Shown here: one piece after another, positions 27,472 to 52,548 of the stretch
Position numbering within the stretch: position 1 is the first letter of the stretch
Layout of the letters: the number at the start of each line of letters is the position of its first letter
Assembly: GCA_948567375.1 (NCBI GenBank)
Contig: OX419755.1
Span: forward strand, 76,282,931-76,346,930
Source: Lunularia cruciata
Taxonomy: Eukaryota > Streptophyta > Marchantiopsida > Lunulariales > Lunulariaceae
Length of the DNA stretch: 64,000 nt
Reading direction: 5' to 3'
Program-made: the position numbers and the translations under genes
Notes under the pieces: model-generated
Databases searched by the model: none
Told to the model about the DNA's origin: nothing
The model's input: only the letters and a program-made list of their open reading frames with translations

Positions 27472-27475
27472 TTTT

Positions 27476-27493: not shown

Positions 27494-27512
27494 CTCTCTA
27501 TAAGGCAAGATA

Positions 27513-31139: not shown

Positions 31140-33867
31140 GTGAGATTTGAGGAGATTTTCCGCAAGTTCATCCATGTGTTTGCTTTTAGTTACAAGGATT
31201 TGAAAGAAGTCACCTTGGAGGAGCACAAGATAGAGGTGGAGTCACATTCAAGACCAATCCGCCAAAAGCAACGTTGCATTAGCCCACCAATATCTTTGGT
31301 TGTGAAGGAGGAGATGGATAAGCTCAAGGAGGCTGGATTTATCTTTGAGGTGGAGAATTCAGAATGGGTGTCTCCAATTGTCATTGTGAAGAAAAAGAAT
31401 GGCAAGCTTTGGGTATGTGTAGATTACAAGAAGCTCAATGTTGTTACCAAGAAGGGCTACTATCCATTTCCGTTCGTTGATGAGATCTTGGAGGAGGTTG
31501 CAAGTCATGAGAGGTACAGTTTTGGAGATGGTTATAGTGGATACAACCAAATCAAGATTGCACCAGAGCATCAACAACTCACCACATTCACCACACCTTG
31601 GGGAACTTACGCTTTCAAGGTCATGCTTTTTGGGCTTTGCAATGCTCCAGCCACATTCCAATGGTTCATGAACAAGGTATTTGAACCTTTTATTGGGAAA
31701 TTTGTGAGAGACTTCATTGATGACTTTTGTGTTTATGGGAGAAAGGAGGAGTACTTTGAGCACCTAATCAAAGTCTTGCAATGCTTGAATGAGGCAAATG
31801 CATCACTCAACCTAGAGAAGTGCATTTTTGGATGTGAAGAAGGTCTAATTTTGGGGCACATCATCTCCAAGGATGGAATAGCAATTGATCCTGAGAAGGT
31901 GAGGAAAATCTCAGACCTTCCATTCCCTTCAAGCTTGACAAAGTTATGCCAATTCTTGGGGATGGTTGGGTACTATAGGAGGTTCATCTTCTCATTTTCC
32001 AACAAAGCTTATGCATTGACCATCTACATGAAGAAGGGTGTAGATTACATGGTGATTTTGGAAGACAAGGAGGCTCTCAAAGCTTTTGAGGAGCTCAAGC
32101 AATCCTTTGTTGTAGCTCCAATTCTTGCTAAACCTGATTGGAGTAAGCCTTTCATCCTCTACACTGATGCTTCTAATGTAGCTATAGGATGCACTCTTAG
32201 TCAATTAGACCAAGATGGGCATGATCATCCATTAGCTTATGCTAGTAGGCATATGGTTTCAGCAGAGAAGAACTACTCTGTCATGGAGAGAGAAGGGTTG
32301 GCAGTGATCTTTGGTCTCAAGAAGTTCAGACACTACTTGATTGGAGGGAAAGCCACCATTGTCACGGATCACAAGGCTTTGAAGTACATCTTCAACAAGC
32401 CTAATGTTGAAGGGAGACTAGCAAGGTGGATGATACTCTTGTCTGAGTATGACTACACCATTGAGGATAGGCCAGGAAAGAAACATGCAAATGCTGATTT
32501 GTTATCTAGAGCCTATGATCATAATGGAGATGAGCCAATGGATGATTCCTTCCTGGATGAGGAGCTCATGACAATCTCAGTCACTCAAGAGGTTCCAATG
32601 GAGTACAAGGAGATTGTGGATTTTGTGACAAGAGGTAACTATCCAGAAGGGATGCATGCTAGGGAGAGGAAGGCCCTTGCAGCAAGATCTAGACCTTACA
32701 CAATGGTGGAGGATATTCTTTTTCACCAAGGAGCAGATGGTCTACTTCGAAGAGTAGTGGGTAAGGAAGAGTCTATCCTACTCATAAAGGAGTTTCATGA
32801 AGGTTTAGTATGTGGAGGACACTTTGCAGGAAAGGTGATTGCTTTCAAGATTCTAGATGCAGGTTACCATTGGAGAGGGATTTTCAAGGATTGTCTTGAT
32901 TATTGCAAAACTTGTCATGTTTGTCAAGCTTTTGCTAGAAAGTCTACATCCACTCCACCACTTAGATCAATTCCATTACTAGGACCTTTTGTGAAGTGGG
33001 GAATTGATTTTGTAGGTCCTCTCAATAGAACCCCAAGGAACAATTGGTACATTGTGGTAGTTACTGATTACCTTACCAAGTGGGTTGACGCTAGACCATT
33101 GAGGGACAAGAATGAAGACAAAGTGGGTAGATTTCTTTATGAATGCATTATCACTAGGTTTGGATGCCCTTTGGAGTTGGTTTCTGATAGAGGAGGAGAG
33201 TTTACAAGAAGCATTACTACAGCCATGCTACAACATTTCTCTATCACACATAGAGTAACTACATCCTATAAGCCAAATTCCAATGGCTTGGCAGAGAGAA
33301 CCAATCAGACCTTGTGCATGATGTTGGCCAAAGATGCAGAAATGGAGGGGGCAAAACATCATTGGGACAAGAGGATTCATGCAGTTTTGTGGAAGTATAA
33401 GACAACCATGAAGACTTCTACGGGATATTCTCCATTTCAATTGGTGTATGGTATTGAGTCTACCTTACCTATTCACTTTGATCTTCCTACCTTCCAAAGC
33501 ATTCATATGAGATTGAAGAAAGCACAAGGAGGTGATGCAGAGAAGTCAAGGAATGATCAACTCATGGAGTTGGAAGAGGCAAGAGCAGTTGCTATGGTTC
33601 GAGTGGAGCAAGCCCAAAGGAAACAAAAGGAGGGCTGACAAGAGGTAAGGCAAGAAGAAGGTGGAGCCTTTCAAAGAAGGTGATTGGGTAATGTTGTTTG
33701 ATTCCATTCGATTCAAGAGAGTGCAAAAGAAGTTTTTGCCTAAGTACTTTGGACCTTTCATAGTAGAGAAGGTGTGGGGCAATTACACCTATGATCTCAA
33801 GGAGTTGGGAGGAAGACACTTTGAGAGGATTAACCATGATAAGTTGAAGATGTACCATAGAAGGTAG
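31140..33867 (+). pseudogene. Family A pol: RT, RNase H, integrase (A2)
   Basis: Open for 832 codons in the same frame as gag; a TAA near 31096 separates them. RT: WVCVDYKKLNV, DGYSGYNQIKIAP, FGLCNAPATFQ, catalytic FIDD near 31713. RNase H: LYTDASNVAIG, AVIFGLKKFRHYL, VTDHKALKYIF, HANADLLSRA. Integrase: zinc-binding HFAGKVIAF...CKTCHVCQ, core WGIDFVGP, VSDRGGEF, NGLAERTNQ (D, D, E all present). A small deletion near 33637 gives a TGA and shifts frame; the last block 33661-33867 (VEPFKEGDWVMLF, INHDKLKMYHRR) is in another frame. No chromodomain is evident. Confidence 0.92.
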
Positions 33868-33902
33868 AGAGGCCTTCACTTTGAGGACAAAGTGAAAACT
33901 TA

Positions 33903-34607
33903 GTCCGGGGGTAAATGTAACACCCATTTGTGCATGTGTGTGGTATTGTGATATTTAGCTTGGTATTACAAGTACTTAAGAGATATTATTTATATAGAGA
34001 TAAAGGATGGTTCTATATTAGTCATGGTTAGCTAAAGTTAGACATAGCTAAGATAGAGGGGACCTTACTTTAGAGGAAGTAGAAAAGATGAGCACCACTA
34101 TTTTGGATTTTAGTATGTTGACTTGGTATTATTCCTAGGTGTTTGGCTTTGAGGAAAGAGTTGAGAACTCTTGGGCCTGCAAGCCTTTTTGTTTTGGATT
34201 CTTCTTTAGTCCAAGGATAACCCATGTGAAGGAATCCTTGACTTAGTGGTTGTGTCAAGATAAGACCACATGCTTAGGGGAATATGCCCATGTGAATGGA
34301 TATTCCTTTCTACTTTTTGACTTTACTTGACTTTTAGTCTAGTAACTTGAGTTACTACGGTAATTAGTAACTTTGGTACGTAACTATTTCACAAGTATAT
34401 AAACAAGGGGTGAGGAGGTACTCATCATCCTTTCATTTGCAACTATCTCTCTCTCATTGAGTTCTCTAGTGAGCAATGTCTTGAGTCTTGGAGTGTTAGC
34501 CTTGGAGGAGTATGATGGAGTTGGGGTTCCTTGCCTTCTTAGTCCATGGTGCGCTACCATAATAGCCATCAGAGGTTCATCCTGAGTGAGAGATAGGCCG
34601 GCTCACA
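33903..34607 (+). repeat. Polypurine tract and 3' LTR of A2
   Basis: PPT-like GTCCGGGGGTAAA at 33903-33915, then the 692-bp LTR 33916-34607. LTR ends GGCCGGCTCACA, followed by the second TSD copy GACT. Confidence 0.9.
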
Positions 34608-36034
34608 GACTCAATCACCACCATGCCTCCCTTGGGTTTCCTTTCTTGGTCTTCCGAGGTTTTGTCTTGTCTTTGGCTTTGGCTTGCCAACTTTGTTTCT
34701 TTGATTTTGGAGTACTCGTTTCTATCTCCACATTCTTCCCCGTCTTCTTGTAGTACTCGTCTGTGCTTTGGATTTGAAGGATGTATTGCTGCTCCTCTAC
34801 ATCGACTTCTCTTCTTAAGTTGGGATGGAAATGCGACACCATTCAAGTTTGCTCTGCCAAGTTGAGCAAATTCAACCCAAGATAAAAGTGTGCTGCAAAT
34901 AGCATGATGTAATGTGGAGGCAACTTATCCCGCAAATTCCACACCATTTTTTGCGTCCTTCCATGGAAGCACCTCAGCCAATTGATTGGTTCTCTTGCAA
35001 ACAATTTGTGAAAGAACACCGCTTGGTGTTTCATCACATACGTCGTTCTCTCCGGCTTCAAGATGGCCATGAGAGCACTCACGATCCCTCTCTTCACTGA
35101 ATCCTTGTAACTCTCAACCTTATATCCATTCTTTGTCCGCTTTGATGAGAATGCATCCCTTACTTCTTGGGTTTCTTTGGCTATCTCTCCCTTCTCCAAG
35201 AACGTGGCACCCTGCTCTGTGCTTGCCTTTTTTTCCAAGTTCTAATCTCCAATCCGACTCTATCCTGCAAGCCGGATGTCCTCTCTTCCCTTCTTCCTCG
35301 GGCCCATCGAGACACTTGCTCTCGATGATCTCAATCATGAAACTTGGAAAACTAACATTCCAATTCCATGCCAAGAATGTAATCTGAAGTTGGCTCAAGA
35401 CTTCAATTCTTGCGATTACGTCTAACCTCCAAATCGCATGATTCCTCACTGTCAATTTGGAGTTCTTCTTTCCTCCTCCCATCTCTCCTGCTTTCTCACT
35501 ATCTCTTGGTTTCACTCTCTTGACTTCTCCCTCACACACTAGCGCATCTTCAACTCTATTTCCCTTCCTACAATCATCTGCAGGATGACTTCTCAACGGC
35601 AAAGGAAAATTGCTCGACATTGCTTCATCGCGAGCTTGATTTTTATAGAGTTGCACTTTCTTTGTCTTTCTTCAATTTGAGGTTCTACCAAGAAATCACA
35701 CCTCTTGCATGCACCTATTATTGTCAATCGTTCTTCACGCATATGGGCCGCCAATTTTGAACAGTCCCTTCTTGAATTTCTCATCTCAACGAAAGGTTGT
35801 TAGACTGTCTTTGCCTTGAGTTGAGCTCCCCCGATGCAAAGACTCCTTACTTTGTATTGTATGCTGACAGGGCATTTCCGAGTACTTTGCCTTATGACCC
35901 AAAGTCACTTTACTTTGGGTTTCATCCCAAAGACTCTTTTCTTTGCCTTCTTTAGCCATACATGCACAATCCGACTTCTCTATACACTTCTTCTTCTCTA
36001 TTTTGAGAAAAACAAAAAATGTGGGCACCATAGG

Positions 36035-36607: not shown

Positions 36608-36845
36608 TATAACAACCTAGAAAATATCACTTTTGTGATAATCAGGTAAGTAAATTTTGTTCCTGCAAAGATACAATTCAGAATTGATAAAATACAAAGC
36701 AAAGTAACAATCATAGTTCTTCTTAGTTGCATCTTTAATCTTTCAAGTAGAAACTGCACCCAAAAGAGAGTAACAATCACTCAATTTTGACAACTTATCA
36801 CTAATTCACACTCTCATAATCACAACATAGCAAATTCTATCTAAA
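36608..36845 (-). mobile_element. 3' end of an old C-like LTR (C-LTR5), left part
   Basis: Diverged LTR end (minus strand ...GGTTGTTATA at 36608). It is interrupted at 36845 by the full-length C element and continues at 51694 after the second CTAAA. Its terminal CA is mutated. Confidence 0.8.
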
Positions 36846-37513
36846 TGTGACAAACCGACAAATATCACTTTTGTGGTAATCGGGTAAGTAAAGTTTGTTC
36901 CCGCAGAGATACAAGTCAGAATTGGTCAAATACAAAGCAAAGTAACAATTTCAGTTCTTCTTGAGTTCTTCTTTAGTCTCTCAGGTAGAAACCACACCTA
37001 GAAGAGAGTAACAAGCACTGATTCGCAGTCTTGTCACAAATTAACACTTCTTAACCACAACTCCAACAAATCTTTCCAAACAATCTTGATTGTGATGATT
37101 CAAGCTCTCCCAAAAATGGCACTTCATTGCAAAACGACTTCACCTCAGAATTGTGTTCCACCCCTCCATTGAAGGCACAACTTCCTCAATCAAAATTGCT
37201 TCACATCAACCTTGCATTGCACTCACAAATGTAGAATACTACCAACACTACAATTCCTCTCAGATCTATCAAGGCATTACTTTGATTGCACTTTACTCAG
37301 GATCAAACACATAAAATGAAGATCAAGGCTGCGGAATCCAACCTCCAACAAACACACTGACTTGCACTTTGAATTTCTCCAAACACTCACAAACACAAGT
37401 ACAACATTGATACTCGGAATCAAGCTTAAGCGACGAGCACTGCTTCACAACACTTCGCTTTATTTTTCCTCAAAATTATGAGCACTGAACAACATAACAC
37501 TCCAAATGCCACT

Positions 37514-37521
37514 CTTAAATA
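37514..37521 (-). promoter_or_regulatory. Distal TATA-like box in the C1 3' LTR
   Basis: TATTTAAG on the minus strand, inside the conserved context CACTATTTAAGAGTGGC, downstream of the LTR ORF. Candidate promoter for full-length genomic RNA. The 5' LTR has it at 48600-48607. Confidence 0.5.
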
Positions 37522-37632
37522 GTGAAGCAATCTACAGTTCTAACAACTATACCGTTCTATAACAACTCTTCTAACCTGCAGATCCAAAATGACAATGCAC
37601 CTCTTCATATTCTTCAAATCTCAAAACTGTTA

Positions 37633-40167
37633 CTAATCCGATCCGATGTCTACTTTGTCATCGACTATCAAACCCGAACTCAAAATAAATTTACTTCCTA
37701 CTACTCTGTCTTTGGGTTTCACAAAATCTAATTCTTCTACCAGATCCATCAATTCTCTTTCCTGATTTGAAATTCCACTAGTGGGTAACCTATCTAACTC
37801 CTTATCTCTCGACCCACTCTTCTCTAATGTCTCTATTGCTAACTCCAAAGTCATATGTACTCCTACTTTGTCTACTTTGGGTTTTGCTCTTACATCCTTC
37901 TGAAGTTTGTCTATATCCAACTTTACTAAGTCTAATCTAATTGTGATATTATCTTCTACTTCTAATATCTTCCTATCTACACGAGTTCTTAGACTGATCA
38001 ACAAGGCATTTAAATCTGTGTCTTTCACTTGTGTTTGCCTCATCTGCTGCACCAACTTCAACTCATGCAACCTCGTCTCTTCAATCCAAATGCTGGCCTC
38101 TGTACTTAGCATTGCATTCATTCTGAGGACAATCTCCTTCAATGGCTCCAATCGCATCTTTCTTTCTTGCTCCTGATTTGCAAGCCAATCATCTCTATTC
38201 ATTGCCAACTCCGCTTCAAACTCAGCTTTCACCGTTTCTTTCTCCTTCTCCTTCTGTTCAATCTTCTCCTCTTTATTACAAAGTAACTCTCGTAATCTAT
38301 CTTCTTCCATATATCTTACCACCAACTCCCTTTGCCAGAGTTGCTTCTTCTCTTCTACGCTCTCCATCACTCTATTGAGCTCTTGTTCCTTTGCTGCTAC
38401 CCTCTCCATAGCATGGATAAGTTCTAATCTTGAATCAACAAACTGCTGCTTCAAAATCTTGTTCTCTACTACTTGTCTCTCCCTTGCTATGCCACTCTTC
38501 TTAACAAGTTCCTCTTGATACATCACTTCTCTCTTCAATTCTTCAATTACTTGATTCTTCACTACTGCCTCCCCTTGCAGTACTTGCCTTTCCTCCTCAC
38601 CTTGGGTTATAATCTTCTTCAACTCCAAGTTCTCTTCTTCTAATCTTGATAACACTTGCAAGAAAGTCTTCACCTCTGGACAAGTCGACTGCATCTCCTT
38701 CTTCCTGTGCTCCAATTTCACCAACAATGGACACACGATCTCCCATAGGTACTCCACTCCATCACTCACAACTACCTCCTCCTTTGTAGCAATCTCCCTT
38801 CTCACTTCTTGTTCCCCCAATACTCGCCTTTGTCTCTGCTGTCTTCATATTGGAATCAATGCCTCACTTCCCGAGCTAGCATTCACTTCTTCCTTCACCT
38901 TACTTGGACCCGCTTCATACTTTGCCTTGCGTCTTGAACAAACTCCCCTCTGAAGTGCAATCTTCTTCTCTTCGGGCTCAGGTATCTTGTCCTCCAACTT
39001 TGTGTTGTCCTCTGGCTCAAGCTCCACCTGAATTTCTTCTTCTTCCTCCATAATAGCTAGTACCGACATCATTTCTCCACCTTCATTGCTGTCGCTACTC
39101 ATATCTCCACTTTGCAGCGTTAGCTCTAATTCTTCCCCGCATTTCAAGTCGTCAAACTTGCACTTGGCTTCACCTTCCGAGTCTTTGTCTTATGACATGA
39201 TCACCACCATGCTCCTCCTTAGGTTTCCTCCCCTGGTCTTCTGAGGCCTTGTCTTGTCTTTGGCTTTGCCTTGCCGACTTCACTTCTTCGACTTTGGAGT
39301 ACTCATTTCTATCTCTACATTCTTCCCCGTCTTTGCATAGTAGTCATCCGAGCTCCGGATTTGAAGGATATATTGCTGCTCCTCTATGTCAACTTCTCTT
39401 CTCAAGTTGAGATGGAAGTACAACACCATTTGATTTTGCTCCGCCGAGTTGAGCAAATTTAACCCGAGGTAAAAATGTGCTGCAAATGGCACGATGTAAT
39501 GTGGAGGCAACTTATCTTTTAGATTCCACACCATTTGTCACGTCCTTCCATGGAAGCACGTTGCCCAATTGATTGGTTCTCTTGCAAACAGTTTGTGAAA
39601 GAACACCGCTTGGTGTTTCATGACATACATCATTCTCTTTGGCTTCAGGACTGCCATGAGAGCACTCACAATCCCTCTCTTCACTGGATCCTTGTAACTC
39701 TTGACCTTGTATCCGTTCTTTGTTCTCTTCGAAGAAAAAGCGTCCCTCACTTCTTGAGTTTCTTTTGCTACTTCTCCCTTACCCAAGAATGTGGCTCCTT
39801 GCTCCGTGCCTGCTTCTCTCTTGAGCACTAATCTCCAATCCGACTCTGTCCAGCAAGCCGGACTTCCTCTCTTCCCCTCTTCCTTGGGGCCTAGAAAATT
39901 GACATTCCAGTTCCATGCCAAGAATGTAATCCAAAGTCGACTCAAGACTTTGATTCTTGCGATTACATCTAGCCTCCAAATCATATGATTCCTCACTACA
40001 AATTTGGAGTTCTTCTTTCCTCCTCCTATCTCTCCTGCTTTCTCAATGTCTCTCGGTTTAACTCTCTCAACTTCTCCCTTACACACTAGCGCGTCTTCAA
40101 CTCTATTTCCCTTCCCATGATCACCTACAGGATGACTTCTCAATGGCAAAGGAAAATTGCTCGACAT
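37633..40167 (-). pseudogene. LTR-encoded coiled-coil protein (C1 3' LTR)
   Basis: The clearest copy: blocks 40167-39538, 39534-39280, 39147-38845 and an uninterrupted 395-codon coiled-coil block 38820-37633. N-terminal domain: SSNFPLPLRSHPVGDHG, GGGKKNSKFVVRNHMIWRL, FLAWNWNVNFLG, NGYKVKSYKDPVKRGI, FHKLFAREPINWATCF. Linker rich in Lys, then acidic Ser (LQSGDMSSDSNEGGEM). Coiled coil: HRKKEMQSTCPEVKTF, LSRLEEENLELKKI, EERQVLQGEAVVKNQVIEE, AAKEQELNRVMESVEEKK, KIEQKEKEKETVKAEF, DRKILEVEDNITIRLDLV. No signal peptide or membrane segment seen. One break is CGA to TGA before QMVWNL. No family recognised; a structural, Gag-like or RNA-packaging role is only a guess. Confidence 0.8.
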
Positions 40168-40185
40168 TGCTTTATCATTAGCCCG

Positions 40186-40194
40186 ATTTTTATA
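40186..40194 (-). promoter_or_regulatory. Proximal TATA box before the LTR ORF (C1 3' LTR)
   Basis: TATAAAAAT on the minus strand, conserved in the other long C LTRs (51307-51315 in the 5' LTR). The ATG used for the ORF lies only about 20 bp downstream, closer than a normal start site would allow, so translation may begin at a later ATG or the box may work differently. Confidence 0.45.
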
Positions 40195-40443
40195 GATTTG
40201 TGCCTTCTTTGTCTTTCTTCAATTTGAGGTTCTACCAAGAAATCACACCTCTTGCATGCACCTATCACTGTCAATCGTTCTTCACGCATATGGGCCGCCG
40301 GTTTTGAACAGCTCCTTCTTGAATTTCTCATCCCGATGAAAGGTTGTTAGACTGTCTTTGCCTTGAGTTGAGCTCCCCCAATACAAAGATTCCTTACTTT
40401 GTATTGTATGCTGACAGGGCATTTCCGAGTACTTCGCCTTATG

Positions 40444-40467
40444 ACCCAAAGTCACTTTACTTTGGGT
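40444..40467. promoter_or_regulatory. Palindrome, C1 3' LTR
   Basis: Arms ACCCAAAGT and ACTTTGGGT with a 6-bp spacer, as in C-LTR1; the C1 5' LTR site (51547-51570) has one mismatch. Confidence 0.5.
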
Positions 40468-40580
40468 TTCATCCCGAAGACTCTTTCTTTTGCCTTCTAC
40501 GGCCATACAACCAAAATTTGACTTCTCTTTACACTTCTTCTCCTTTATTTTGAACAAAAACAAAAAATGTGGGCACCACA

Positions 40581-40593
40581 TACCCTTTCCCTC
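40581..40593 (-). other. Polypurine tract of C1
   Basis: Minus strand GAGGGAAAGGGTA, directly before the LTR start TGTGGTGCCC. It overlaps the stop codon of pol at 40592. Its position fixes the LTR boundary independently of the repeats. Confidence 0.9.
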
Positions 40594-41796
40594 AAATGTG
40601 AGCATCCTTGCAAACATAGACCTCGAGTGTCTTAGAGACTTCCAAGTCTATGGTCCAATATCTCCGAACTCTCCACCCGTTTACTCGAGTGGCAAAAGGA
40701 TTACCCTTGAGGTCTACAAGCTGCATGGACCTATTTTCATACAAATGAAGAACTTGATAGGGACTCATCCACCTCAAATGCAACTTGCCTGGAAAAAATA
40801 TTTGGCAATTGTCATATAACAAAACCAAATCTCCTTCACGTACAGCAACAGACTTGATATGCTTATCTTGCCTGACTTTCCTCTGTGGTTGTACTTCCTT
40901 TGTGGTTTGCATTGCATTGTCTCTTTTCTCTTCTAACCACATCAGTTGATGAATCCAACGATCTTGACTTTCTTCCTCCGACAGTCGTTCTTCGCAAAGA
41001 ATACTTGTCAGTACTTCAAATTCAACTAGCAGTATGGGATGCAAGCCATATGTCAAGAAGTATGGAGTTTGTTTGGTTGTAATCTTTTTTGTTGTTTGAT
41101 ATGCCCACAACGTGGCTGGTAATTTTGTATCTCATAGGCATAATTGACAGTCACCTTATTCAAAATTTTACAAAGTAACCCATTTGCCTTTTCCGTTAAG
41201 CCATTTTCTTTTGGGTTATAAGGAGTCGTCTTACAATGTTTACTCTGAAAGTACTTGGTTGACTCCTCCATTACAGAGTTCAAAAAGTGTGTTCCTTGGT
41301 CACTGACCAATTCCAAAGGACACCCGTATTGGGAGATGATGTTTTGAAAGAAAAATTCTGCCACAAATTCAGCATCATCTTTGCAAGTTGCTTTAGCTTC
41401 GACCATCTTAGTAGCATAGTCAGTGAAAACCAAAATGTATCGCTTTCTTGTGACTCGGGTCATTGGTTGAATGGGTTACTGACCCACAAAATCAATCCCC
41501 CATTTCTCAAATGGGGCCAAAGGCAAAATTGGTCTCAAAGGCCATTGAGAAGTAGCCGTCAACTTCCCCGTTCTTTGACAAGCATCACAACTTCAGATAT
41601 GAGCATGCACGTCTTTGTACATTGTAGGCCACCAATACCCTACCAAGAGAATCTTCTTTACAGTATTCTTCTGAGCATAGTGTCCTCCCGATGCTTTGGA
41701 GTGTAAAGATTTAATCACTCCTCCTACTTCGTATGACTCCAAGCATCGCCGAAGTACTTCGTCTTCACCCATCCTAAATAAAATGCTATGTTTGAG
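40592..41796 (-). pseudogene. Integrase of C1
   Basis: Zinc-binding region near 41710-41580 (SLHSKASGGHYAQKN, YWWPTMY, then CDACQRTGK) with a stop before the Cys pair. Catalytic core: WGIDFVGQ, then 41463-41053 with FTDYATKMVEA, VSDQGTHFLNS and NGLTEKANG, so D, D and E are all present. C-terminal block 41110-40592: LTYGLHPILLVEF, REGDLVLLYDN, GWRVRRYW. At least two frame breaks (near 41470 and 41100). No chromodomain seen. Confidence 0.85.
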
Positions 41797-43817
41797 CTAG
41801 TACGGCCCCATTTTCCTAAGAAAGACTACCCTCTGCTCCGGGTCCATCCCTTCAAGACAATGGAGAGTATGTAGATAATGATATTCTAGTGCATACCTCG
41901 TACTTTGCATTGCTGATAATTGATATAACTCTTCATCAAGGAACCGATCTTCAATTTCCCACTCCTGGTCTTGAGTTTCTAACCTGGACAGGAAGTCCGC
42001 ATTCAAATGCAAAGCTCCCTTCCTTACTTGTACAGTATATGTGAATTCTTGTAACAACAAGATCCATCCTGCAATTTGCCCGGAAAAATCTGCCTTCTTG
42101 ACCAAATGTTGCAATGCGTAATGGTCAACATAGAAGACAAACTCGTATCCCAACAGATAGTGGCAAAATTTCTTGCAGGCATACACCATTCCAAGTGCTT
42201 CTCTTTCAATCGCCAAATTATTCTTTTCAGAAACTGAAAGTTGTCGGCTGGCATAATACACCAAGTAGTCCTTCTTCTTTTTGTCCTTCTGACTTAAGAC
42301 AACTCCGATGGTTATGGACAAAGTGTCCACATATACATGAAAAGGGACGTCCCAATTCGGGGCCCTCATAACTCGTGCTTCAACCAGTTTCTTCTTCAAC
42401 ACTTGAAAGCTTCTTCTTGATTTGCTTCCCACAAATAGTCTTCGGATTTCTTTAGAAGCTTTGTAAGGGGTGCAGCAAGCACCACAAAATTTGACACAAA
42501 GTGTCTATAGTATCCGATATGTCCCAAGAAGGCTCTTAGCTCCTGGATGTTCTTTGGGGATTCCAAAGCTGCAATTATCTTAACCTTCTCGACATTGACT
42601 TCAATACCTTGGCTTGACACCCAATGCCCTAGAAGAATTCCCTCCTTCATTGCAAAGAAGCATTTCTCCAAGTGTAATGACAAGCCAACAAAACAACCCC
42701 TTTCAAAAGTTTGGCGAAGGTAATCTAAATGTACATCTCTTCGCCCAAACACACAAAAATCAGCAATGAACACTTCCACAAATTTGTGCAAGAAATCTTT
42801 GAAGATTGAATTCATCATCCTCTGGAAAGTAGCGGGAGCATTACACAACCCCAAGGGCATTTGATTGTAAGTGAAAGTGCCCCAATTGGTCGTGAATGTG
42901 GTTTTATCCTTGTCCTCTTGTTGAATGGGTACTTGATTGTATCGTGAAAATCCATCAAGAAAGCTATAACAAGGATGACCAGCTACTTGGTCCAGAATTG
43001 TATCGGTAAAAGGCAAGGGATGATGATCCTTCCTTGTGACTGCATTCAACTTCCAAAAGTCTTGGCACACTCGGATCTTCCCTATTTTCTTCTTTGGGAC
43101 AATGACAATGGGGAAGACCCATTCACTACTTAAGACAAGGAAGATGATTCCGGCTCCTAAGTACTGGTCAATTTCATCTTTCACCAAAAGCGAGTACTTC
43201 GGGTTCAGGCGGTATCGTCTCTGCCAAACTGGAACCGCACCTTCAACTAGATCAATCCGGTGTTCTCCGAATTCTTGTGGAATACCCGGCATTTGATCAA
43301 TAGACCAAGCAAATACATCCTGGAATTCTATGAACAGGGCAGTGTATCCTGCCAACTCCTCCAAAGTGACTGTCTTCAAAATTTTTAAAAATTTTCCTTC
43401 AGTCAATACAACATCTTGACAGTCATTGGGGTTGATGACTCCTTCAACGTGGCTTACTCGGCTTAACCCGAGGCAAGCTGACATCAAATCCCCTTCCTTC
43501 AAGTCAGGTTCACCCGAGGCGAGGTCATATGGATCTTTGTCTTTGACATCCACCTCGTAGCATTCCAAATAGTTCACTTGGACTTCATCTTTGGATTCAT
43601 CTGAGGACAAAGACGATGAGTCTTCGGATTTGTCCTCCTCTTCCAACGAACTTGTTTCCCCAAGGTGAGGAACTTTCGTCCAACTCACAGTCACCAGCTT
43701 CTGATCTTTGGACGAAATGTCCTTGAATCTTAACTTCTGTTGATGCCAATCCACCACAACTTGGGCATTGTACAACCAAGGTCTTCCGATCAACAGAGTG
43801 TAACTAGTCTTTGTCAC
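41797..43817 (-). pseudogene. Reverse transcriptase and RNase H of C1
   Basis: A 473-codon open block (43817-42396) followed by 42432-41797 in another frame. End of protease domain: LIGRPWLYNAQ. RT: IRVCQDFWKLNAVTRKDHH, LDGFSRYNQVPI, LGLCNAPATFQRMM, and FIADFCVFG where family A has FIDD, so the first Asp of the catalytic pair is replaced by Ala. RNase H: VYVDTLSITIGVVLS (the usual TDAS is altered), YYASRQLSVSEKN, YVDHYALQHLV, HLNADFLSRL. The acidic linker between protease and RT contains EEEDKSEDSSSLSSDES. Confidence 0.88.
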
Positions 43818-43820
43818 TGG

Positions 43821-44060
43821 TCACAACACGATGTAATTCAATTTGAAGGGCACCCCTCCAATGATTGTGGTTATGTTTGACAACATGCCCAAAAGCAGTC
43901 TCTTGGTTTGGTTTGCAAATTTCAAAACTTGGGATGTTGGCTCAAACGTATGATACCCGAGTCGATTTGCAGTATCTTTGGTCATGACATTCACACTGGA
44001 CCTTGAATCAATGGGTATCGATGTGATCATGCACCTTGCAATCTCTGCGTTGTCGTGTTG
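43821..44060 (-). pseudogene. Protease of C1 (partial)
   Basis: Short block with IARCMITSIPIDSRSSVNVM. The active-site region reads DSRSS where active gypsy proteases have DSG, DTG or DGG, so it is probably inactive. Followed by GYHTFEPTSQVLKF and the typical LNYIVL end. Its upstream part is separated from gag by an unexplained segment. Confidence 0.75.
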
Positions 44061-45245
44061 TGGTTTGTGCAGCTTGTAAAAAGTGACTTATCATAGTTTA
44101 TGCTCACGTTAGTGGGGTAGGTTGCATGCTAGATCTGACGGACAAGATGTTGCCATGTGAGCCATCTATGTACATGTATGTGATTGGCCACATGGCTTAC
44201 AATCTTATCATGTTTGAGGGCTCTGATGAATAAAGATGAGGGCGAGTAGAGAGACGGGTGTGTTTTAGTTTGGAGAGTCTTGAGGAGAGAAGGAAGTTGG
44301 GAGAGAGTTGTAGCAGAGAGCAAGTGTTAGAGCATCGGAAGAAGCATTTGAGCATGAGATGTCCCATGCTCCTGATCTGCCACTTCTGAATCCTTTTCTC
44401 ATCAGGCTTTAGATTTTACACCGTGATGACTTACGAGATTAGTTGGTAGCACGTTTTGGAGTGGTGTTTGTGGAGTTGGTGATGGGAAACCCAAATCCTA
44501 TCGTCCTTCCGGTGCTTACTTATGAGAATGTCTGGGACTTGACAATTTATGTCCTTCTATAGTTGGGGAATGCTTAAAATTTTGCTCATAAGCTTCAAGG
44601 TGGAGTTGTGGAGTCCATTTTTCAAAAAGTAAAAAGAGTAGAGGACAAATGTGCAAGAACTTGGGTCTCAAGGGAGAAGTTGGGAGTTTTTGACCATCCG
44701 AGGAGTTCGGTGAGGGCATTCAAGGAATGGAGGACATGGTTGGAAAGAGGAGATAAAAGGCTATAATTTGCAGACAAAAATCACTCAATTTGAGTTGAGT
44801 ATGATGGATATGATCAATTGAGTGAAAAGGAGTTGAATTCATACCCAAGAGCACAAAGTAGTTGATTGAGGGAGCTTCTTGAGACTTTTTCACTATCTGT
44901 CAGTGGGATTGGAGAGTAGACAATGTTATTATAGTATTGAGTGCAATAAATTCCAGTTTTGGGTCAATCTCAAATCAGATCCAATTGATTGAAGTTGAAG
45001 CTTATGGGATGTAAGATATTGGAGAAGAGCTAATGATCAGGTGAGGTTGCCAAGTACTATCCTTCCCGATAGCAAGAATATTAGTCATGAGAAAGGAGGG
45101 TTTCGGCAATAAGGGTCACACGTGTGTTTTGTTGAGTCATTACGGGTTTACCTCTAGCTTCTGATCTGTAGTCTCCACAGCTGGGCACCTTGTGTGTTCC
45201 CAGAGAGAGAAAAGGAAAGTACGACAGCGTCCACCCCGGGAGATC
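44061..45245. other. Unexplained 1.2-kb segment inside C1
   Basis: Lies between the end of gag and the protease, where related gypsy elements usually run continuously. Stops in all frames. On the plus strand a broken reading contains VFVELVMGNPNPIVLP, VKRVEDKCARTWVSREKLG and FKEWRTWLERGDKRL, which could be an old ORF of another element. No terminal repeats or target duplication found. The exact borders are uncertain by about 50 bp. Confidence 0.4.
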
Positions 45246-45255
45246 CTAAATCTTC

Positions 45256-47841
45256 TTATTCAATACAATAGATAGCTGGCAGGTCCTTCTTTGATATCAA
45301 CCTCACCTTCTTGAGGGCCAAATTCAGCTGCTTCTTGTACACCTTGTTATCTTCCCACAATTGCTTAAATGTAACGTTGGCATTTGTGGCTGCCAGATCT
45401 GCTACAATATCGTACTGGGGTACTCCTCCCAATTTGAACGTCTTGGCCTTCCGCTTCAGGTTCAAAGTCTCTCCATGTTCCCTCTTGACTTTGGGATGCT
45501 TCAAAATGGTGACGGGATTGCTAGTGGCCTTAACCCGAGGTTCGTTGGGTTGGTCCACCTCGGCTTGGATCAGAACCTTTACTTCGGATCGGATGTTCAC
45601 CGGAAAAATTGGAGACTTCATCTTTGTCTCCTCTTCCAAACTCAGCTCCTGAGTCCTGAGTAGTGCCTCCTTTAGTTATTTTTGCAAGGCTTTAGCTTTG
45701 GCTTTTGCGAGGATCTTTTTCTCTTTGGCAGAAAGAATTGCCTTTGGGCACAGTCTCTTTGCCTTTCTAGAAGACGATGAGGTCGTACTCAGTTCTTTGG
45801 GATCACGCTTCTTCTTACTGGAGCTTTTCTCAACCTTCAAAATTTCAAGGTCCGGCCATTCTCCTTTCAAGGCCGGACTTCCTTCCTAAGGTCTCTCCTC
45901 CTCAAGCGTGATACTATTTACATTTGTATCCCCCTTTGCCTGAATTGCTGCACGCTTAGCGGGGGTCTGTACATACTTTACAGGCTGCTTCAGGTTCAGT
46001 GGGTGAGGACATTGGTTGCCCGTATGTCTCGATCCTTTACAATTTCTGCACAAGGGAACATACCCGATTTGCCTTCTTGTCTCCGGACAGTTTGGAGACC
46101 AATGTCCCATCGAGCCACAATTGTAACAAGCTCCGGGTGCAACATTTTGAGGGCGATTTTGGTTGCTCATTGGTGGTCTTTGTGAAGGAGCATTGGGGTA
46201 ATACTCCCTTGGTCCAAACCTTGTACCTTGGTACGATGTGCTAGCGTGAGGCTATACTTCTTGCGTTTGGTACACAACCTCTTCATCCTCGTCTTGGCTC
46301 CATCCCGGAACCTAATCAATTTGTTGCACCAGGAATGCATTACGAGTATTGCATTATGTGTTTGCGTGGCCTGATTTGCCACATGCAGTGCACCATACAT
46401 TTGATCTCCCAAATGCTGGGGCCTTCCTTCTATCTTTGGCCCCAATCATCTGGATCTTGAAATCCGAAAACTCCTTGATGAGGGCATCCAGCTTGGTATC
46501 CGCCTTATTTACACTCTTTGTTGGAGGAGTCCTTGGTTTCTTACCCCCACGTCTTCTTACTTGTCTTGGCTTTGATTCTTCTTTGGATTCCAAAGAAGAG
46601 CTAGAAGACGTGGAGGATTCTTCCAAAGAAGGGGATGTACAATGCGAAGCTCTCCTTTTGGGCTTCTTGCCTTTCTTCTCCCGATTTCTCCAGTTGCCAG
46701 CAGAGTAAGAGTGGGCCGCCTCGTAACGAGCAACATGTTTGAGTCCTTTGTCAAGGGAAGTTACATTTCCTCTCCCTTGCAAAGATTTGGATCTTTGGTG
46801 AAAGTCCCCCGAGGAACCAGGTAATGGCTTGGGCATCAGAGTAACCCACCACCCCCGATTGCTTGCGAACTCGGTTCAAGAGAGCCATGAACCGCTTAGA
46901 GTAGTCTCTCAACTTCTCCTTCTTGCCTTGGTCTAAATTGTTGAGTGCCGCAAAGACACTTGTGTCGTAATCAACCTCCCGGAATCATTCCAGGAAGTTG
47001 TTTCTCAAGTCTGCCCAGTCCATCGGTACGAACCCCTTTTGGGTCACATGGGTGTACCAACTCCGAGGTTTCGTTAAGAGCAAACTTGGGAAAATTCTTA
47101 GTTGATCCGCCGAGTCATGCTCCTTGTTAGCAAAGGAGATGACTTTGAATTCTTTGATGAATTCATCGGGGTCTTTGTCTTGTTCTATATCCTTATACTT
47201 CTGATAGGCGTGTCAAGTGACAGGCAACGAAGTCATTGTTTGATGCATTGGAATCGGCTGAGGTAATGTTGAACTTGACGGAACTAAGGGATTGGTTGGT
47301 ATTGACGCCATTTTTTCAGCCCAAGGGTTCCAATTTGTCAAATTCAAGGTGGGGTCTTCTTTGACAATTTCTGCTATGAGGGTGTCAACTTCAACCCGAG
47401 TGGAAGATTCAAGATCAACACCTCCGATTTGCTCTTCAAAATTCCTTCAGGACAACCAAGGAATCGTTTGTAGAAGATGTTGACACCCTTCTTCCGTAAG
47501 TGTTCGTGCTATCTTTTCTCAAACAAAGTTCTTTAAGGACATGACTTCCTTTACAGCTCTAGGGGAAGTTGGTGTACTGGGCCGCAATGCATATGTTTGG
47601 CCACTTGAGTCTTTCTTGTTCTTGGACAAAGAGGGAGATGCAAAGTAGCCTTGCTAACCGCCTTTTCATTTCTTGTGGTCAAGTTCTCGCATGGCTTCTT
47701 GCACTTTGTGAAGAAGTTGAAAGTCCAACGCCTCTTGTTTGGGTTCGTCAACAGTGAATAGGACATTCAGATGTTCATCTTCTTCACGCTGCATTGCTCG
47801 TCTTTGAGCTCTCTCTTCTTGTTGTTCTCTCAATGTAGACA
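45256..47841 (-). pseudogene. Gag of C1
   Basis: ATG at 47841, about 65 bp after the PBS (STLREQQEERAQRRAMQRE). Frame breaks follow. A capsid-like region at 47310-46840 includes MASIPTNPLVPSSS, DEFIKEFKVISFANKE, WADLRNNFLE and YSKRFMALLNRVRKQSG (retrotransposon gag type). Then 46836-46354: Ser-rich SSTSSSSSLESKEES and a partial knuckle CTACGKSGHANT. Block 46170-45886 has two further knuckles, CYNCGSMGHWSPNCP and CRNCKGSRHTGNQCP. A Lys-rich block 45870-45676 follows, and 45639-45256 ends KKDLPAIYCIE. Three zinc knuckles is more than the single one in family A gag. Confidence 0.85.
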
Positions 47842-47904
47842 TTCATATTACGTTGATACCCAGTTTCAAATTTAGCTTTGTATTCTTCCACTTCCAAGAT
47901 TTGT

Positions 47905-47923
47905 ATCCCCGGCAGCGGCGCCA
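47905..47923 (-). other. Primer binding site of C1
   Basis: Minus strand TGGCGCCGCTGCCGGGGAT, 7 bases after the LTR end. It matches the plant tRNA-Asp 3' end almost perfectly, as in many plant gypsy elements. Confidence 0.9.
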
Positions 47924-47930
47924 AAAATCA

Positions 47931-50900
47931 TGTGACAACCTAAAAAATATTACTTTTGCGGTAATCGGGTAAGTAAAGTTTGTTCCCACAAATATACAAG
48001 TCAGAATTGGTCAAATACAAAGCAAAGTAACAATTTCAGTTCTTCTTGAGTTCTTCTTTAGTCTCTCAGGGAGAAACCTCACCCAGAAGAGAGTAACAAG
48101 CACTAATTCACAGTCTTGTCACAAATTAACACTTCTTAATCACAACTCCAACAAATCTTTCCAAACAATCTTTGATTGTGATGATTCAAGCTCTGACAAA
48201 AACGGCACTTCACTACAAAATGACTTTGCCTTAGAATTGTGTTCCACCCCTCCATTGAAGGCACAACTTCCTCCATCTAAGTTGCTTCACATCAACCTCG
48301 CACTGCACTCACAAATGCAGAATACTACCAACACTACAATTCCTCTCAGATATGTCAAGGCATTGCTTTGATTGCACTTCACTCAAGATCAAACACACAA
48401 AATGAAGATCAAGGCTGCGGAATCGAACATCCAACAAACACACTGACTTGCACTTAGAATTTCTCCTTATACTCACAAACACAAGTACAACATTGATACT
48501 CGGAATCAAGCTTAAGCGACAAGCACTCCTTCACAACACTTTGCTTGATCTATTCTCAAAATTATGAGCACTGAACAACATAACACTGTGAATGCCACTC
48601 TTAAATAGTGAAGCAATCAACAGTTCTAACAAGTATACCATTCTATAACAACTCTTCTAACCTGTAGATCCAAAATGACAATGCACCTCTTCATATCTGC
48701 CTCTTCAAATCTCAAAACTGTTACTAATCCAATCTGATGTCTACTTTGTCATCGGCTTTCAAACCCAAACCCGAAGTAAATTAACTTCCTACTACTCTGT
48801 CTTTGGGTTTCACAACTTCTAATTCTTCTACCAGCTCCATCAATTCTCTTTCCTGATCTGAAATTCCACTAGTGGGTAACTTATCTAACTCCTTATCTCC
48901 CGACCTTCTCTTCTCTAATGTCTCTATCGCTAACTCCGAAGTCATATGTACTCCTACTTTGTCTTCTTTGGGTTTTGCTCTTACATCCTTCCGAAGTTTG
49001 TCTATCTCCAACTTTACTAAGTTTAATCTAATCGTGGTATTATCTTCTACTTCTAATATCTTCCTATCTACACGAGTTCTTAGACTGATCAACAAGGCAT
49101 TTAAATCTGCATCTTTTGCCTGTTTGCCTTGTCTGCTGCACCAACAACTTCAACTCATGCAGCCTGATCTCTTCAATCCAAATGTTGGCCTCTATACTTA
49201 TCATTGCGTTCATCCTGAGGAAAATCTCCTTCAATGGCTCCAATTGCATCTTTCTTTCTTGCTCCCGATCTGCAAGCCAATCCTCTCTGTACATCGCCAA
49301 CTCCGCTTTGAACTCGGCTTTCACCGTTTCTTTCTCCTTCTCCTTCTGTTCAATCTTCTCCTCCTGATTACAAAGTAACTCTCATAATCTATCTTCTTCC
49401 CTATATCTTACTACCAACTCCCTCTGCAAGAGTTGCTTCTTCTCTTCTACGCTCTCCATCACTCTATCAAGCTCTTGTTCCTTCGCTGTTACCCTTGCCA
49501 TAGCATGGATAAGTTCTAATCTTGAATCAACAAACTGCTGCTTCAAAATCTCGTACTCTACTACTTGTCTCTCCCTTGCTATGTCACTCTTCCTAACAAG
49601 TTCCTCTCGATACATCACTTCTCTCTTCAAGTCTTTGATTCTTCACTACTGCCTCCCCTTGCAATACTTCCCTTTCCTCCTCACCTCGAGTTATAATCAT
49701 CTTCAACTCCGCGTTCTCTTCTTCTAATCTCGATTACACCTGCAAGACAATCTTCACCTCTGGACAAGTTGACTGCATCTCCTTCTTCCGGTGCTCCAAT
49801 TTCACCAACAATGGACACACGACCTCCCGTAGGTACTCCACTCCATCACTCACAACTACCTCCTCCTTCGTAGCAATCTCCCTTCTCACTTCTTGTTCTC
49901 CCAATACTTGCCTTCATCTCTGCAATCTTAGTATCAAAATCAATGCCTCACTTCCCGAGCTAGCATTCACTTCTTCCTTCAGCTTACTCGGACCCGCTTC
50001 ACACTTTGCCTTGCGTCTTGAACGAACTCCCCTCTGAAGTGCGATCTTCTTCTCTTTGGTCTCAAGTATCTAGTCCTCTAACTTCGTGTTGTCCTCTGGC
50101 TTGAGCTTTGCCTGAACTTCTTGTTCTTCCTCCACAGCAGTTGGTACCAACGTAATTTCTCCACCTTCATCGCTATCGCTACTCATATTCCCACTTTGCA
50201 GCGTTAGCTCTGGTTCCTTCTTGCGTTCCAAGTCGTTGGACTTGCACTCAACTTCACCTTCCGAGCCTTTGTCTTCTAACGTGATCACCACCATGTCTCT
50301 CCTCGGGTTTCCTCTCTTGGTCTTCCGAGGCCTTGTCTTGTCTTCGGCTTTGCCTTGCCAACTTTGCTTCTTCGACTTTGGAGTATTGGCTATTATCTCT
50401 CCGTTCTTCCTTGTCTTTGCGTAGTACTCATCCGTGCTCCGGATTTGAAGGATATACTACTGCTCCTCTACGTTGACTTCTCTTCTCAAGTCGGGATGGA
50501 AGTGCAACACCATTTGATTTTGCTCCACCAAGTTGAGAAAATTTAACTTGAGGTAAAAATGTACTGCAAACGACACGATGTAATGTGGAGGCAACTTATC
50601 CCGCAGATTCCACACCATTTGTTGTATCCTTCCATGGAAGCACCTCGCCTAATTGATTGGTTCTCTTGCAAACAATTTGTGAAAGAACACAACCTGGTGT
50701 TTCATGACATACGTTGTTCTCTCTGGCTTTAGAATTGCCATGAGAGCACTCACAATCCTTCTCTTCACTGGATCCTTGTAACTCTCGACCTTGTATCCGT
50801 TCTTTGTTCTCTTTGAAGAAAAAGCGTCCCTTACTTCTTGAGTTTCTTTTGCTACTTCTCCCTTACCCAAGAATGTGGCTCCTTGCTTCATGCGTGCTTC

Positions 50901-51693
50901 TCTCCCAAGCATTAATCTCCAATCCGACTCTGTCCTGCGAGCCGGATTTCCTCTCTTCCCCTCTTCCTCGGGGCCATCAAGACACTTGCTCTCAATAGTC
51001 TCAGTCATGAAATCTAGAAAACTGACATTCCAGTTCCATGCCAAGAACGTAATCCAAAGTCGACTCAAGACTTTGATTCTTGCAATTACGTCTAGCCTCC
51101 AAATCATATGATTCCTCACTACAAATTCGGAGTTCTTCTTTCCTCCTCCCATCTCTCTTGCTTTCTCAATGTCTCTTGGTTTCACTCTCTCGACTTCTCC
51201 CTTACACACTAGCGCATCTTCAACTCTATTTCCCTTCCCATGATCACCTATAGGACGACTTCTCAACGGCAAAGGAAATGCTTGACATTGCTTCATCGTT
51301 AGCCCAATTTTTATAGAGTTGTGCCTTCTTTGTCTTTCTTCAATTTGAGTTTCTACCAAGAAATCACACCTCTTTTATGCGTGTGTCACTATCAATTGTA
51401 CTTCACGCGTATGGGCTGCCGGTTTTGAACGGCCCCGACGAAAGGTTGTTAGATTGTTTGCGCCTTGAGTTGAGCTCCCCTCGATACAAAGACTCCTTAC
51501 ATTGTATTGTATGCTGATAGGGCATTTCTGAGTACTTTGCCTTATGACCCAAAGTCACTTTACTTTGGATTTCATCCCAAAGACTCTTTTCTTTGCCTTC
51601 TACGGCCATACAAGCGCAATTTGACTTATCTATACACAATTTGACTTATCTTCTCCTTTATTTTGAACAAAAACAAAAAATGTGGGCACCACA
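47931..51693 (-). repeat. 5' LTR of C1 (3763 bp)
   Basis: Same layout as the 3' LTR: palindrome 51547-51570, TATA box 51307-51315, ORF 51288-48724, distal TATA-like box 48600-48607. LTR ends mutated (AACCTAAAAAATATTAC near 47937). Right TSD CTAAA at 51694. Confidence 0.93.
48724..51288 (-). pseudogene. LTR-encoded coiled-coil protein remnant (C1 5' LTR)
   Basis: Same ORF upstream of gag in the full-length element and in the same sense. A small deletion near 51275 shifts the first codons. Blocks: 51288-50649 (FLAWNWNVSFLD, KRGNPARRTESDWRL, NGYKVESYKDPVKRRI), 50294-50070, 49630-49382, 49324-49064 and 49095-48781 (DRKILEVEDNTTIRLNLV). Total length 2.57 kb, again about 855 codons, although the frame is broken several times. 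Confidence 0.75.
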
Positions 51694-52548
51694 CTAAACA
51701 AATCTTGATTGTGATGATTCAGATTCTCTCAAAGACAACACTTCATTGCATAATGACTTCACCTCAGAATTGTGTTCCACTCCTCCATCGAAGGCACAAC
51801 TTCCTCAATCAAAATTGCTTCACATCAACACTACGCTGCACTCATAACTGCAAAATACTACCAACACTACAATATCTCCCAGATCTATCAAGGCATTGCT
51901 CCGATTGCACTTTACTCAAGATCAAACACATAGAAGGAAGATCAAGGCTGTGGAATCCAACATCCAAAATACACATTGACTTGCACTTCAAAATTCTCCA
52001 AACACTCACAAACCCAAACACAATGCTAATACTTGGAATTAAGCTCAAGCGACAAGCATTGAAATCAACACTTTGCTTTATCTATTTTCAGAAATTATGA
52101 CTGCTGAACAACATAACAATGCAAATGCATCCATTAAATAGGTAGAGCACTTCAACAGTTATCTAACAACTATACCATTCTACAACAACTCTACAAACCA
52201 ACAGATCCAAAATGACAATGCACCTCTTCATATTTGCCTCTTCAAATCTCAAAACTATTACTTCTGATCCAATGTCTACTTTGACTTTGGCTTCCAAACT
52301 TGATGTTCCTTCAAGAATTTCTCCATGTTTGGGTCTACTCAATTCTACTCCTAACTCTTCTATTTCTATAATTTCTTCACTACAAACTACAATTGCACAA
52401 GTGGGTAACCTATCTAACTTGTCATCTCCCGACCCACTTCTCTCTAAGTTCTCAGATAACAACTCCGAGGTCACTTGCACTCCTTCTTCTCTTACTTTGA
52501 GTCTTCTAACTACTTGTACTTCACTATGAAGTTTATCCAACTCTGTCT
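51694..52548 (-). mobile_element. Old C-like LTR (C-LTR5), right part
   Basis: Continues 36845 after the C1 insertion. The sequence is clearly C-LTR tail (CAATCTTGATTGTGATGATTC type) but diverged from the others. It includes ORF-tail codons 52540-52163 (VQVTSELLSENLERSGSGD, DRLPTCAIVV, VKVDIGSE). Truncated at 52548, where a family A LTR begins. Confidence 0.8.

What the first reader, a model, noticed from the sequence alone, without database searches (positions are those of the whole stretch)
36846..51693. A gypsy retrotransposon whose 3.7-kb LTRs each encode a coiled-coil protein
C1 has every landmark of a complete element: TSD CTAAA, two LTRs, a tRNA-Asp PBS right inside the 5' LTR, gag-pol, and a PPT directly before the 3' LTR. 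These fix the LTR borders, and an ORF region of about 850 codons lies wholly inside each LTR in sense orientation. Its product has a conserved N-terminal domain (FLAWNWNV, NGYKVESYKDP, RQMVWNLRDK), a basic/acidic-Ser linker and a long coiled coil. Six further copies show the same gene layout. Protein-coding LTRs are rare (MMTV sag is the classic case). I know of no described plant family with this design and recognise no known domain in the protein. It could be a structural or packaging partner of Gag, or a captured host gene.
Basis: partly seen in the sequence, partly recalled or inferred. Interest (0 to 1): 0.88.

Follow-up and report, generated by a model that had tools for sequence, protein, structure and literature searches.

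The report
Plant retrotransposon with protein-coding terminal repeats
An abundant jumping gene in this plant genome carries an extra gene inside each of its two long end-repeats, which normally hold only control signals, and the pattern of mutations shows that the gene was kept working while the element multiplied.

Summary
C1 is an old minus-strand Ty3/gypsy element: LTRs 36846-40580 and 47931-51693 (89% identical), TSD CTAAA, PBS, PPT, gag, RT, RNase H, integrase. Each LTR carries, in sense, an 844-codon frame (LTR nt 414-2948). Neither refuting result was seen: three solo LTRs in the window and nine elsewhere in the 566-Mb genome, with their own target duplications, carry the frame, and it lies inside the LTR at other LTR/internal junctions. 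It was a working gene: C1's two LTRs differ evenly by codon position (87/75/77), C1 against diverged copy I 120/93/226; among 15 copies private changes are even (147/130/152), shared ones skewed to third positions (93/87/163). A TATA-like box follows the stop codon in 16 of 16 copies, so the gene probably sits in U3, like MMTV sag, in the place of a third gene after pol. Its protein has no match above cut-off in Pfam or the PDB and none among the candidates scored from 5.8 billion proteins; heptads cover only about 90 residues. Expression, function and distribution in other plants are untested; none of the 16 aligned LTRs has an intact frame.

The parts
36841..36845 (.). target-site duplication CTAAA, left
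   Evidence: sequence
36846..40580 (-). 3' LTR of C1 (copy E), 3735 bp
   Evidence: PPT on its upstream side
37633..40167 (-). LTR ORF, 844 codons, 3' LTR copy (4 in-frame stops)
37515..37521 (-). TATTTAA box, 112 nt past the ORF stop; TA[TC]TTAA in 16 of 16 aligned LTR copies
40581..40593 (-). polypurine tract GAGGGAAAGGGTA, overlapping the last pol stop codon (40592-40594)
40592..41131 (-). C-terminal part of integrase frame, no chromodomain hit
41053..41463 (-). integrase core (rve)
   Evidence: E 1.3e-8
41596..41796 (-). integrase zinc-binding domain (H2C2)
   Evidence: E 1.3e-7
41797..42432 (-). RNase H
   Evidence: E 6e-26
42396..43817 (-). reverse transcriptase; close relatives in Marchantia and Riccia
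44050..45227 (.). about 1.18 kb of C1's internal region missing from six other copies
45889..46251 (-). gag zinc knuckle (CCHC)
   Evidence: E 3.9e-8
46754..47212 (-). gag capsid pieces (Retrotrans_gag: 9.4e-5, 23.0 bits, just below the cut-off of 24.1, in 46754-46984; 0.035 in 46988-47212)
47906..47923 (-). primer-binding site TGGCGCCGCTGCCGGGGA, tRNA-Asp type
   Evidence: tRNA match recalled
47931..51693 (-). 5' LTR of C1 (copy F), 3763 bp
48724..51288 (-). LTR ORF, 5' LTR copy (7 stops, 3 frameshifting gaps)
48601..48607 (-). TATTTAA box in the 5' LTR
51694..51698 (.). target-site duplication CTAAA, right
2122..5907 (-). solo LTR A, TSD ATCAC, inserted in another element (Z); ORF 2925-5493
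10269..15866 (+). diverged solo LTR C, TSD AGAAG, inserted in Z; ORF pieces 10619-11527 and 13895-14998, split by an insertion that includes B
24416..36030 (-). LTR copy D split by nested Z element (26781-34613)
57620..61095 (-). solo LTR I, TSD AGTAC, inserted in Z; ORF 58413-60681 with a 244-nt gap against E

Best explanation
C1 belongs to an abundant Ty3/gypsy family in which a third gene, in the usual place of an additional or env-like ORF after pol, lies wholly inside U3 because the polypurine tract sits between pol and that gene. Shown: the gene is in both LTRs of C1 and in solo LTRs; its start, stop and frame are conserved; it evolved under purifying selection in the multiplying lineage and decays neutrally after insertion. 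Inferred from a conserved TATA-like box after the stop codon: transcription starts behind the gene, so the full-length RNA reads R-U5-PBS-gag-pol-PPT-U3(gene)-R and holds it once, near its 3' end. Reverse transcription then copies it into both new LTRs. The 3' LTR copy is the one that the element's own transcript can express (by splicing, reinitiation or a separate promoter; not known which). Inferred and weakest: the product, a conserved N-terminal domain plus a linker and a charged, partly coiled-coil helix, oligomerises and works as an intracellular partner of Gag or of the element's RNA rather than as an envelope.
For: Borders. Twelve solo LTRs with the gene inside and a 5-bp TSD: A, C, I exact (C's gene is split by an insertion, I's has a 244-nt gap); nine in the genome, five exact and four at 4 of 5 bases, read by eye. 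LTR-to-PBS junctions in L012 and L023 (whole LTR) and L019 and L025 (LTR truncated or in two pieces); internal-to-LTR junctions in L010 (LTR to nt 3672), L011 (LTR in two pieces) and L012 (only LTR nt 1-679 seen). Frame: ATG in 15 of 16, stop codon in 15 of 16, 3-12 in-frame stops against 73-95 and 38-53. Selection: E-F 87/75/77, p 0.60, against E-I 120/93/226, p 2e-15; E-I Ka/Ks 0.19 in frame against 0.81 and 1.05 in the other frames; 15 copies, singletons 147/130/152 (p 0.39), changes shared by at least three 93/87/163 (p 1.7e-7), difference p 0.0009. Diverged copy C, 49-50% identical in the N-terminal part, has the same layout and third-position excess. TATA-like box in 16 of 16 copies and in 9 of 9 window copies covering it, including diverged C, G and H. 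The pol frame runs into the PPT. No strong membrane helix.
Against: No transcript or protein data. None of the 16 aligned LTRs has an intact frame; the longest stop-free run is 580 codons. Two stops are shared between unpaired copies: at nt 1734 in E and D, at nt 1149 in A and D2; recurrent CpG decay or mobilised broken copies could explain them. E against L010, L012, L015, L020, L022 and L027 shows no significant third-position excess (p 0.06-0.53; 6 of E's 12 genome comparisons). NG86 Ka/Ks for the LTR pair E-F is 0.53, not 1, though 0.42-0.62 in every frame, so position counts are used instead. Shared changes in the 3' non-coding control lean a little the same way (26/30/42; chi-square about 4.2 by hand, not significant). 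A second TATA-like motif lies at LTR nt 387, 27 nt before the ATG, in 5 of 5 copies covering it, so U3 is not the only reading. The coiled coil is modest and its partner unknown.
Confidence: 0.66

Rival explanations
1. The gene lies in R/U5, not U3: transcription starts near LTR nt 1-413, so the gene is the first ORF of the genomic RNA, ahead of gag, and each solo LTR could express it.
For: TATA-like motif at nt 387 in 5 of 5 copies covering it; the first 150 nt of the LTR are well conserved (8.7% between I and the others).
Against: That motif is only 27 nt before the ATG, so a transcript would start at or after it. The box at nt 3060 is kept in 9 of 9 window copies, although that stretch differs by 34% between E and C.
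Confidence: 0.2
2. The LTR gene is a host gene caught by the element and carried as a passenger.
For: No Pfam domain and no relative in any other element found.
Against: A passenger would not be expected to keep a third-position bias through the element's multiplication nor across subfamilies about 50% identical. No host gene relative appeared in the protein searches; the own genome could not be searched by protein.
Confidence: 0.06
3. It is an envelope-like protein for cell-to-cell passage, as proposed for some Athila and SIRE elements.
For: Position after pol, sense orientation. One stretch of copy C reaches hydropathy 1.77, above the customary 1.6 (threshold recalled), though it holds charged residues.
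Against: The highest 19-residue hydropathy in copy E is 1.48. Signal peptides were not tested.
Confidence: 0.04
4. The open frame is a by-product of repeat structure or composition and never made a protein.
For: All 16 aligned copies are broken.
Against: Frame-specific stop depletion and frame-specific purifying selection, with neutral controls in the same LTRs.
Confidence: 0.02
5. The two flanks of C1 are independent insertions and not an LTR pair.
For: Only 89% identity, and the region is full of nested copies. E is nearly as close to L010 and L012 (256 differences each, also even by codon position) as to F (239), and L010-L012 differ by 240.
Against: Shared TSD, PBS and PPT in the right places; E-F has the fewest differences of the pairs printed (pairs led by E, I, L010 or L023 only); junctions of the same kind elsewhere.
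Confidence: 0.02

Closest known systems
MMTV sag (superantigen gene in the LTR)
   Same: A sense protein gene within U3, kept by selection, so the LTR evolves as coding sequence (PMC4667437, passages read).
   Different: There most of the gene is in U3; here the whole 844-codon frame is inside the LTR. Sequence relation to sag was not tested directly; no relative of any kind was found. Host is a plant.
Plant LTR elements with additional sense ORFs between pol and the 3' LTR (aORF-3S / eORF-3'F: Athila, Bagy2, SIRE)
   Same: Third gene after pol, sense, mostly without conserved domains (PMC7264820, first of three parts read; PMC6317226, passages).
   Different: In those the ORF lies in the internal region; here the PPT precedes it, so it is part of the LTR and duplicated. 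[quoted passage not shown]
[not shown]
   Different: No lineage-labelled reference RT was available, so clade membership is unproven; no gene inside the LTR is mentioned in the passages read.
Lentiviral nef, foamy-virus bel genes (recalled, not looked up)
   Same: Accessory reading frames that reach into U3.
   Different: They only overlap U3; different proteins and hosts.

Membership tests
Ty3/gypsy LTR retrotransposon | paired LTRs with TG..CA ends and TSD | tested here: met
Ty3/gypsy LTR retrotransposon | PBS after 5' LTR and PPT before 3' LTR | tested here: met
   PBS recognisable, with a few differences, in five copies
Ty3/gypsy LTR retrotransposon | domain order RT - RNase H - integrase | tested here: met
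Tat clade (OTA) | additional RNase H domain (aRH) | tested here: not met
   no second RNase H in the pol pieces scanned; pieces upstream of gag were not scanned; the Tat Z elements of Marchantia are also without it
Athila clade (OTA) | RT phylogeny with labelled Athila references | not tested
   no labelled references at hand; in a quick tree of 24 rows that I chose, the RT groups with Marchantia, Riccia and one unnamed row (96 SH-aLRT)
Athila clade (OTA) | Athila ORF-1 (pfam03078), found in 16% of Athila elements in the survey | tested here: not met
   no such hit for the LTR ORF pieces or the gag/pol pieces scanned
Chromovirus | chromodomain behind integrase | tested here: not met
   0 families at E up to 0.1 for 40595-41131
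aORF-3S / env-like elements | sense ORF between pol and the 3' LTR | tested here: not met
   the ORF lies inside the LTR, behind the PPT
env-like proteins | transmembrane segment | tested here: inconclusive
   hydropathy peaks 1.48 (E, whole frame) and 1.77 (C, N-terminal piece)
sag-like U3 gene (works like) | coding sequence within U3, upstream of the promoter | tested here: inconclusive
   conserved TATA-like box after the stop codon; no transcript mapped
sag-like U3 gene (works like) | gene kept by selection as protein | tested here: met

The most novel reading that the evidence does not exclude
A lineage of land-plant retrotransposons has moved its third gene wholly into U3 and kept it under selection across subfamilies only about half identical in protein. 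Every full insertion carries two copies, every solo LTR carries a gene next to a promoter, and the LTRs (5702 first-look candidates in this genome, 40 of them scored) form a reservoir of a protein family unknown elsewhere; the coding sequence itself is the upstream part of the promoter region.
Probability: 0.5. Interest if true: 0.82.

Novelty: new variant of a known kind. Interest (0 to 1): 0.72.

Why it matters
LTRs are treated as non-coding control regions in annotation and in dating by LTR divergence. A long selected gene inside both LTRs breaks that habit, gives a plant parallel to MMTV sag, and provides an in-built test of selection (pair differences against lineage differences). It also means that solo LTRs, usually read as inert scars, can carry a whole gene.

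Tried and rejected
Chance frame: rejected by stop counts and frame-specific selection. Independent flanks: rejected by TSD, PBS and PPT. L023/L029 as a second LTR pair: rejected, flanks differ and divergence is 14.5% with third-position excess. Z's LTR as a relative of X's LTR: three of four comparisons fell within their 60 shuffles; one exceeded them (X 5' part against reversed Z, score 44, highest shuffle 33) with a gapped alignment that I did not pursue. Splice acceptors before the ORF: seven weak conserved AG candidates, none convincing. Known domains: only sub-threshold Pfam matches (E 0.065-0.18: DUF447_C, SelB_WH_2nd_bact, CBM_4_9_1) for the helical pieces, none for the N-terminal pieces; none in NCBIfam at E up to 0.1 or among PDB chains. 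Relatives of the LTR ORF: none scored E up to 0.01 among the 7998 candidates (a capped list, rich in helix words) and the 1050; the RT control found 921 among 8000 (capped). None confirmed in IMG/VR, GTDB genomes or plasmids. Literature searches for LTR-borne ORFs, listings only: (20 of 244 listed); the words 'protein-coding LTR' occur in PMC8775202, which I did not open.
Full report
What is there. C1 is a minus-strand LTR element. Its LTRs are 36846-40580 (3', copy E) and 47931-51693 (5', copy F), 88.9% identical over 3.8 kb. Both start TG and end CA and C1 is flanked by CTAAA. A tRNA-Asp-type PBS lies 7 nt inside copy F and a purine tract touches copy E. Pfam finds RT (E 8e-20), RNase H (6e-26), integrase core (1e-8), integrase zinc-binding domain (1e-7), a gag zinc knuckle (4e-8) and a sub-threshold gag capsid match. 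The last pol stop codon, 40592-40594, overlaps the PPT, 11 nt from the LTR. About 1.18 kb of C1's internal region (44050-45227) is missing from six other copies at this place, so C1 probably holds a later insertion there.

The gene in the LTR. In element orientation the frame runs from nt 414 to 2948 of the 3.7-kb LTR: 844 codons. In copy E it keeps one register with four stops; in copy F it has seven stops and three frameshifting gaps; no stop is shared by the two, so they probably arose after insertion (the one at nt 1734 in E is also present in copy D). Sixteen LTR copies were compared: E, F, A and I of the window and 12 of the 20 genome stretches fetched, the other eight being partial or split. 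The ATG is present in 15, the stop codon in 15, and in-frame stops number 3-12 against 73-95 and 38-53 in the other frames. None of the 16 is intact; the longest stop-free run is 580 codons.

It lies inside the LTR as a rule. Copies A, C and I are solo LTRs inserted in another gypsy element, Z, with exact 5-bp duplications (ATCAC, AGAAG, AGTAC); C's gene is split by a later insertion and I's has a 244-nt gap. Nine of the 12 genome LTRs have no internal match of 100 bases or more in their 10-kb stretch: five have exact duplications (L014, L021, L022, L027, L028) and four match at 4 of 5 bases (L015, L020, L024, L026), read by eye. L012 and L023 run from a whole LTR into PBS and gag, L019 and L025 from an incomplete one; L010, L011 and L012 run from pol into an LTR start, of which L010 shows nearly the whole LTR, L011 an LTR in two pieces and L012 its first 679 nt. 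The only genome search that was answered gave 5702 first-look candidates for a 1-kb piece of the ORF, of which 40 were scored and all 40 matched, at 87-100% (one being C1 itself).

It was a working gene. Differences between the two LTRs of C1 arose after insertion and fall evenly on codon positions (87/75/77, p 0.60). E against the diverged copy I gives 120/93/226 (p 2e-15), with Ka/Ks 0.19 in frame against 0.81 and 1.05 in the shifted frames. Among 15 copies (I left out) changes private to one copy are even (147/130/152, p 0.39), and changes shared by three or more are skewed (93/87/163, p 1.7e-7); with I included the counts are 170/138/180 (p 0.05) and 91/88/167 (p 2.8e-8). The non-coding LTR ends behind and before the gene show 26/30/42 and 15/20/19 for shared changes. 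Against this: six of E's 12 comparisons with genome copies show no significant skew (p 0.06-0.53), as expected if most of their differences arose after insertion; the E-F Ka/Ks is 0.53 rather than 1, in every frame alike; and two stops are shared between unpaired copies. The diverged solo LTR C keeps the same order of parts, 49-50% identical in the N-terminal part and 36-49% in the helical part, with third-position excess (80/69/130 and 179/134/217 against E). The first 84 codons, a middle part and the last part are less constrained than codons 85-252 and 505-756.

How it probably works. A TATA-like box, TA[TC]TTAA, lies 112 nt past the stop codon in copy E and at the aligned place in 16 of 16 copies and in 9 of 9 window copies covering it, including the diverged C, G and H. 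If it is the element's promoter, about 3.1 kb of U3 holds the gene and about 0.64 kb is R-U5, directly followed by PBS and gag. The gene is then the third gene of the RNA, after pol, and becomes part of both LTRs because the PPT precedes it. A rival TATA-like motif at nt 387 lies too close to the ATG for an ordinary leader but keeps the R/U5 reading open. How the gene is translated is unknown; no convincing splice acceptor was found.

The protein. No Pfam family at E up to 10 for the N-terminal pieces and only sub-threshold matches (E 0.065-0.18) for the helical ones; none in NCBIfam or the PDB at the limits used. Two searches of the 5.8 billion proteins found no relative, but score only proteins that share short words with the query (7998, capped, and 1050 candidates). 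The RT of the same element found 921, among the best listed Marchantia at up to 70% and Riccia at 67-68% identity over parts of the query, with an unnamed protein first and Rutidosis (47%) second. No strong membrane helix, though one stretch of C reaches hydropathy 1.77. Heptad periodicity is nominally significant over about 90 residues of the C-terminal part in E (p 0.005-0.03, windows not corrected for number) and weaker in C; a Fourier test of the same part gave p 0.09. A role as oligomerising partner of Gag or of the element RNA is a guess from anatomy.

Host and literature. The window is part of a 566-Mb assembly; in a quick tree of 24 chosen rows the RT groups with Marchantia, Riccia and one unnamed row at 96 SH-aLRT, so the plant is probably a liverwort or near one (inference). 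The review of additional ORFs in plant elements (PMC7264820, first of three parts read) and the survey of plant elements (PMC6317226, passages) describe extra ORFs beside, not inside, the LTRs in what I read. [quoted passage not shown] Searches for LTR-borne ORFs showed no plant case in the listings; MMTV sag is the nearest that I saw in print (PMC4667437, passages).

Noticed in passing
36846-40580 against 57620-61095: Synonymous divergence of the LTR ORF between E and I is about 0.74, but the non-coding LTR part behind it differs by only about 5-14% per 150-nt window. This suggests exchange of gene versions by recombination, or strong constraint on the flank.
   Followed up: partly
44050-45227: C1's internal region holds about 1.18 kb between the gag zinc knuckle and RT that is absent from L009, L011, L018, L019, L023 and L025; probably a later insertion.
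   Followed up: partly
26781-34613: Another gypsy element (Z), about 7.8 kb, 693-bp LTRs 98.4% identical, with long open frames (521 and 832 aa); a repeated target of the LTR insertions here. Behind its first LTR it reads TGGTTCCGTTACCGGGA, a different PBS type.
   Followed up: partly
24116-24415 and 36036-36339: LTR copy D lies between two copies (95% identical, about 305 bp) of another sequence, and its outer ends show no matching 5-bp duplication.
   Followed up: no
355-1701: Overlapping direct repeats of several hundred bases at offsets such as 149, 256, 406 and 814, probably a decayed tandem array.
   Followed up: no
L020:8749-9991, L021:7718-9991, L030:6-9359: Further LTR relatives, most at 63-78% identity, beside the sampled copies, pointing to several diverged subfamilies.
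   Followed up: no
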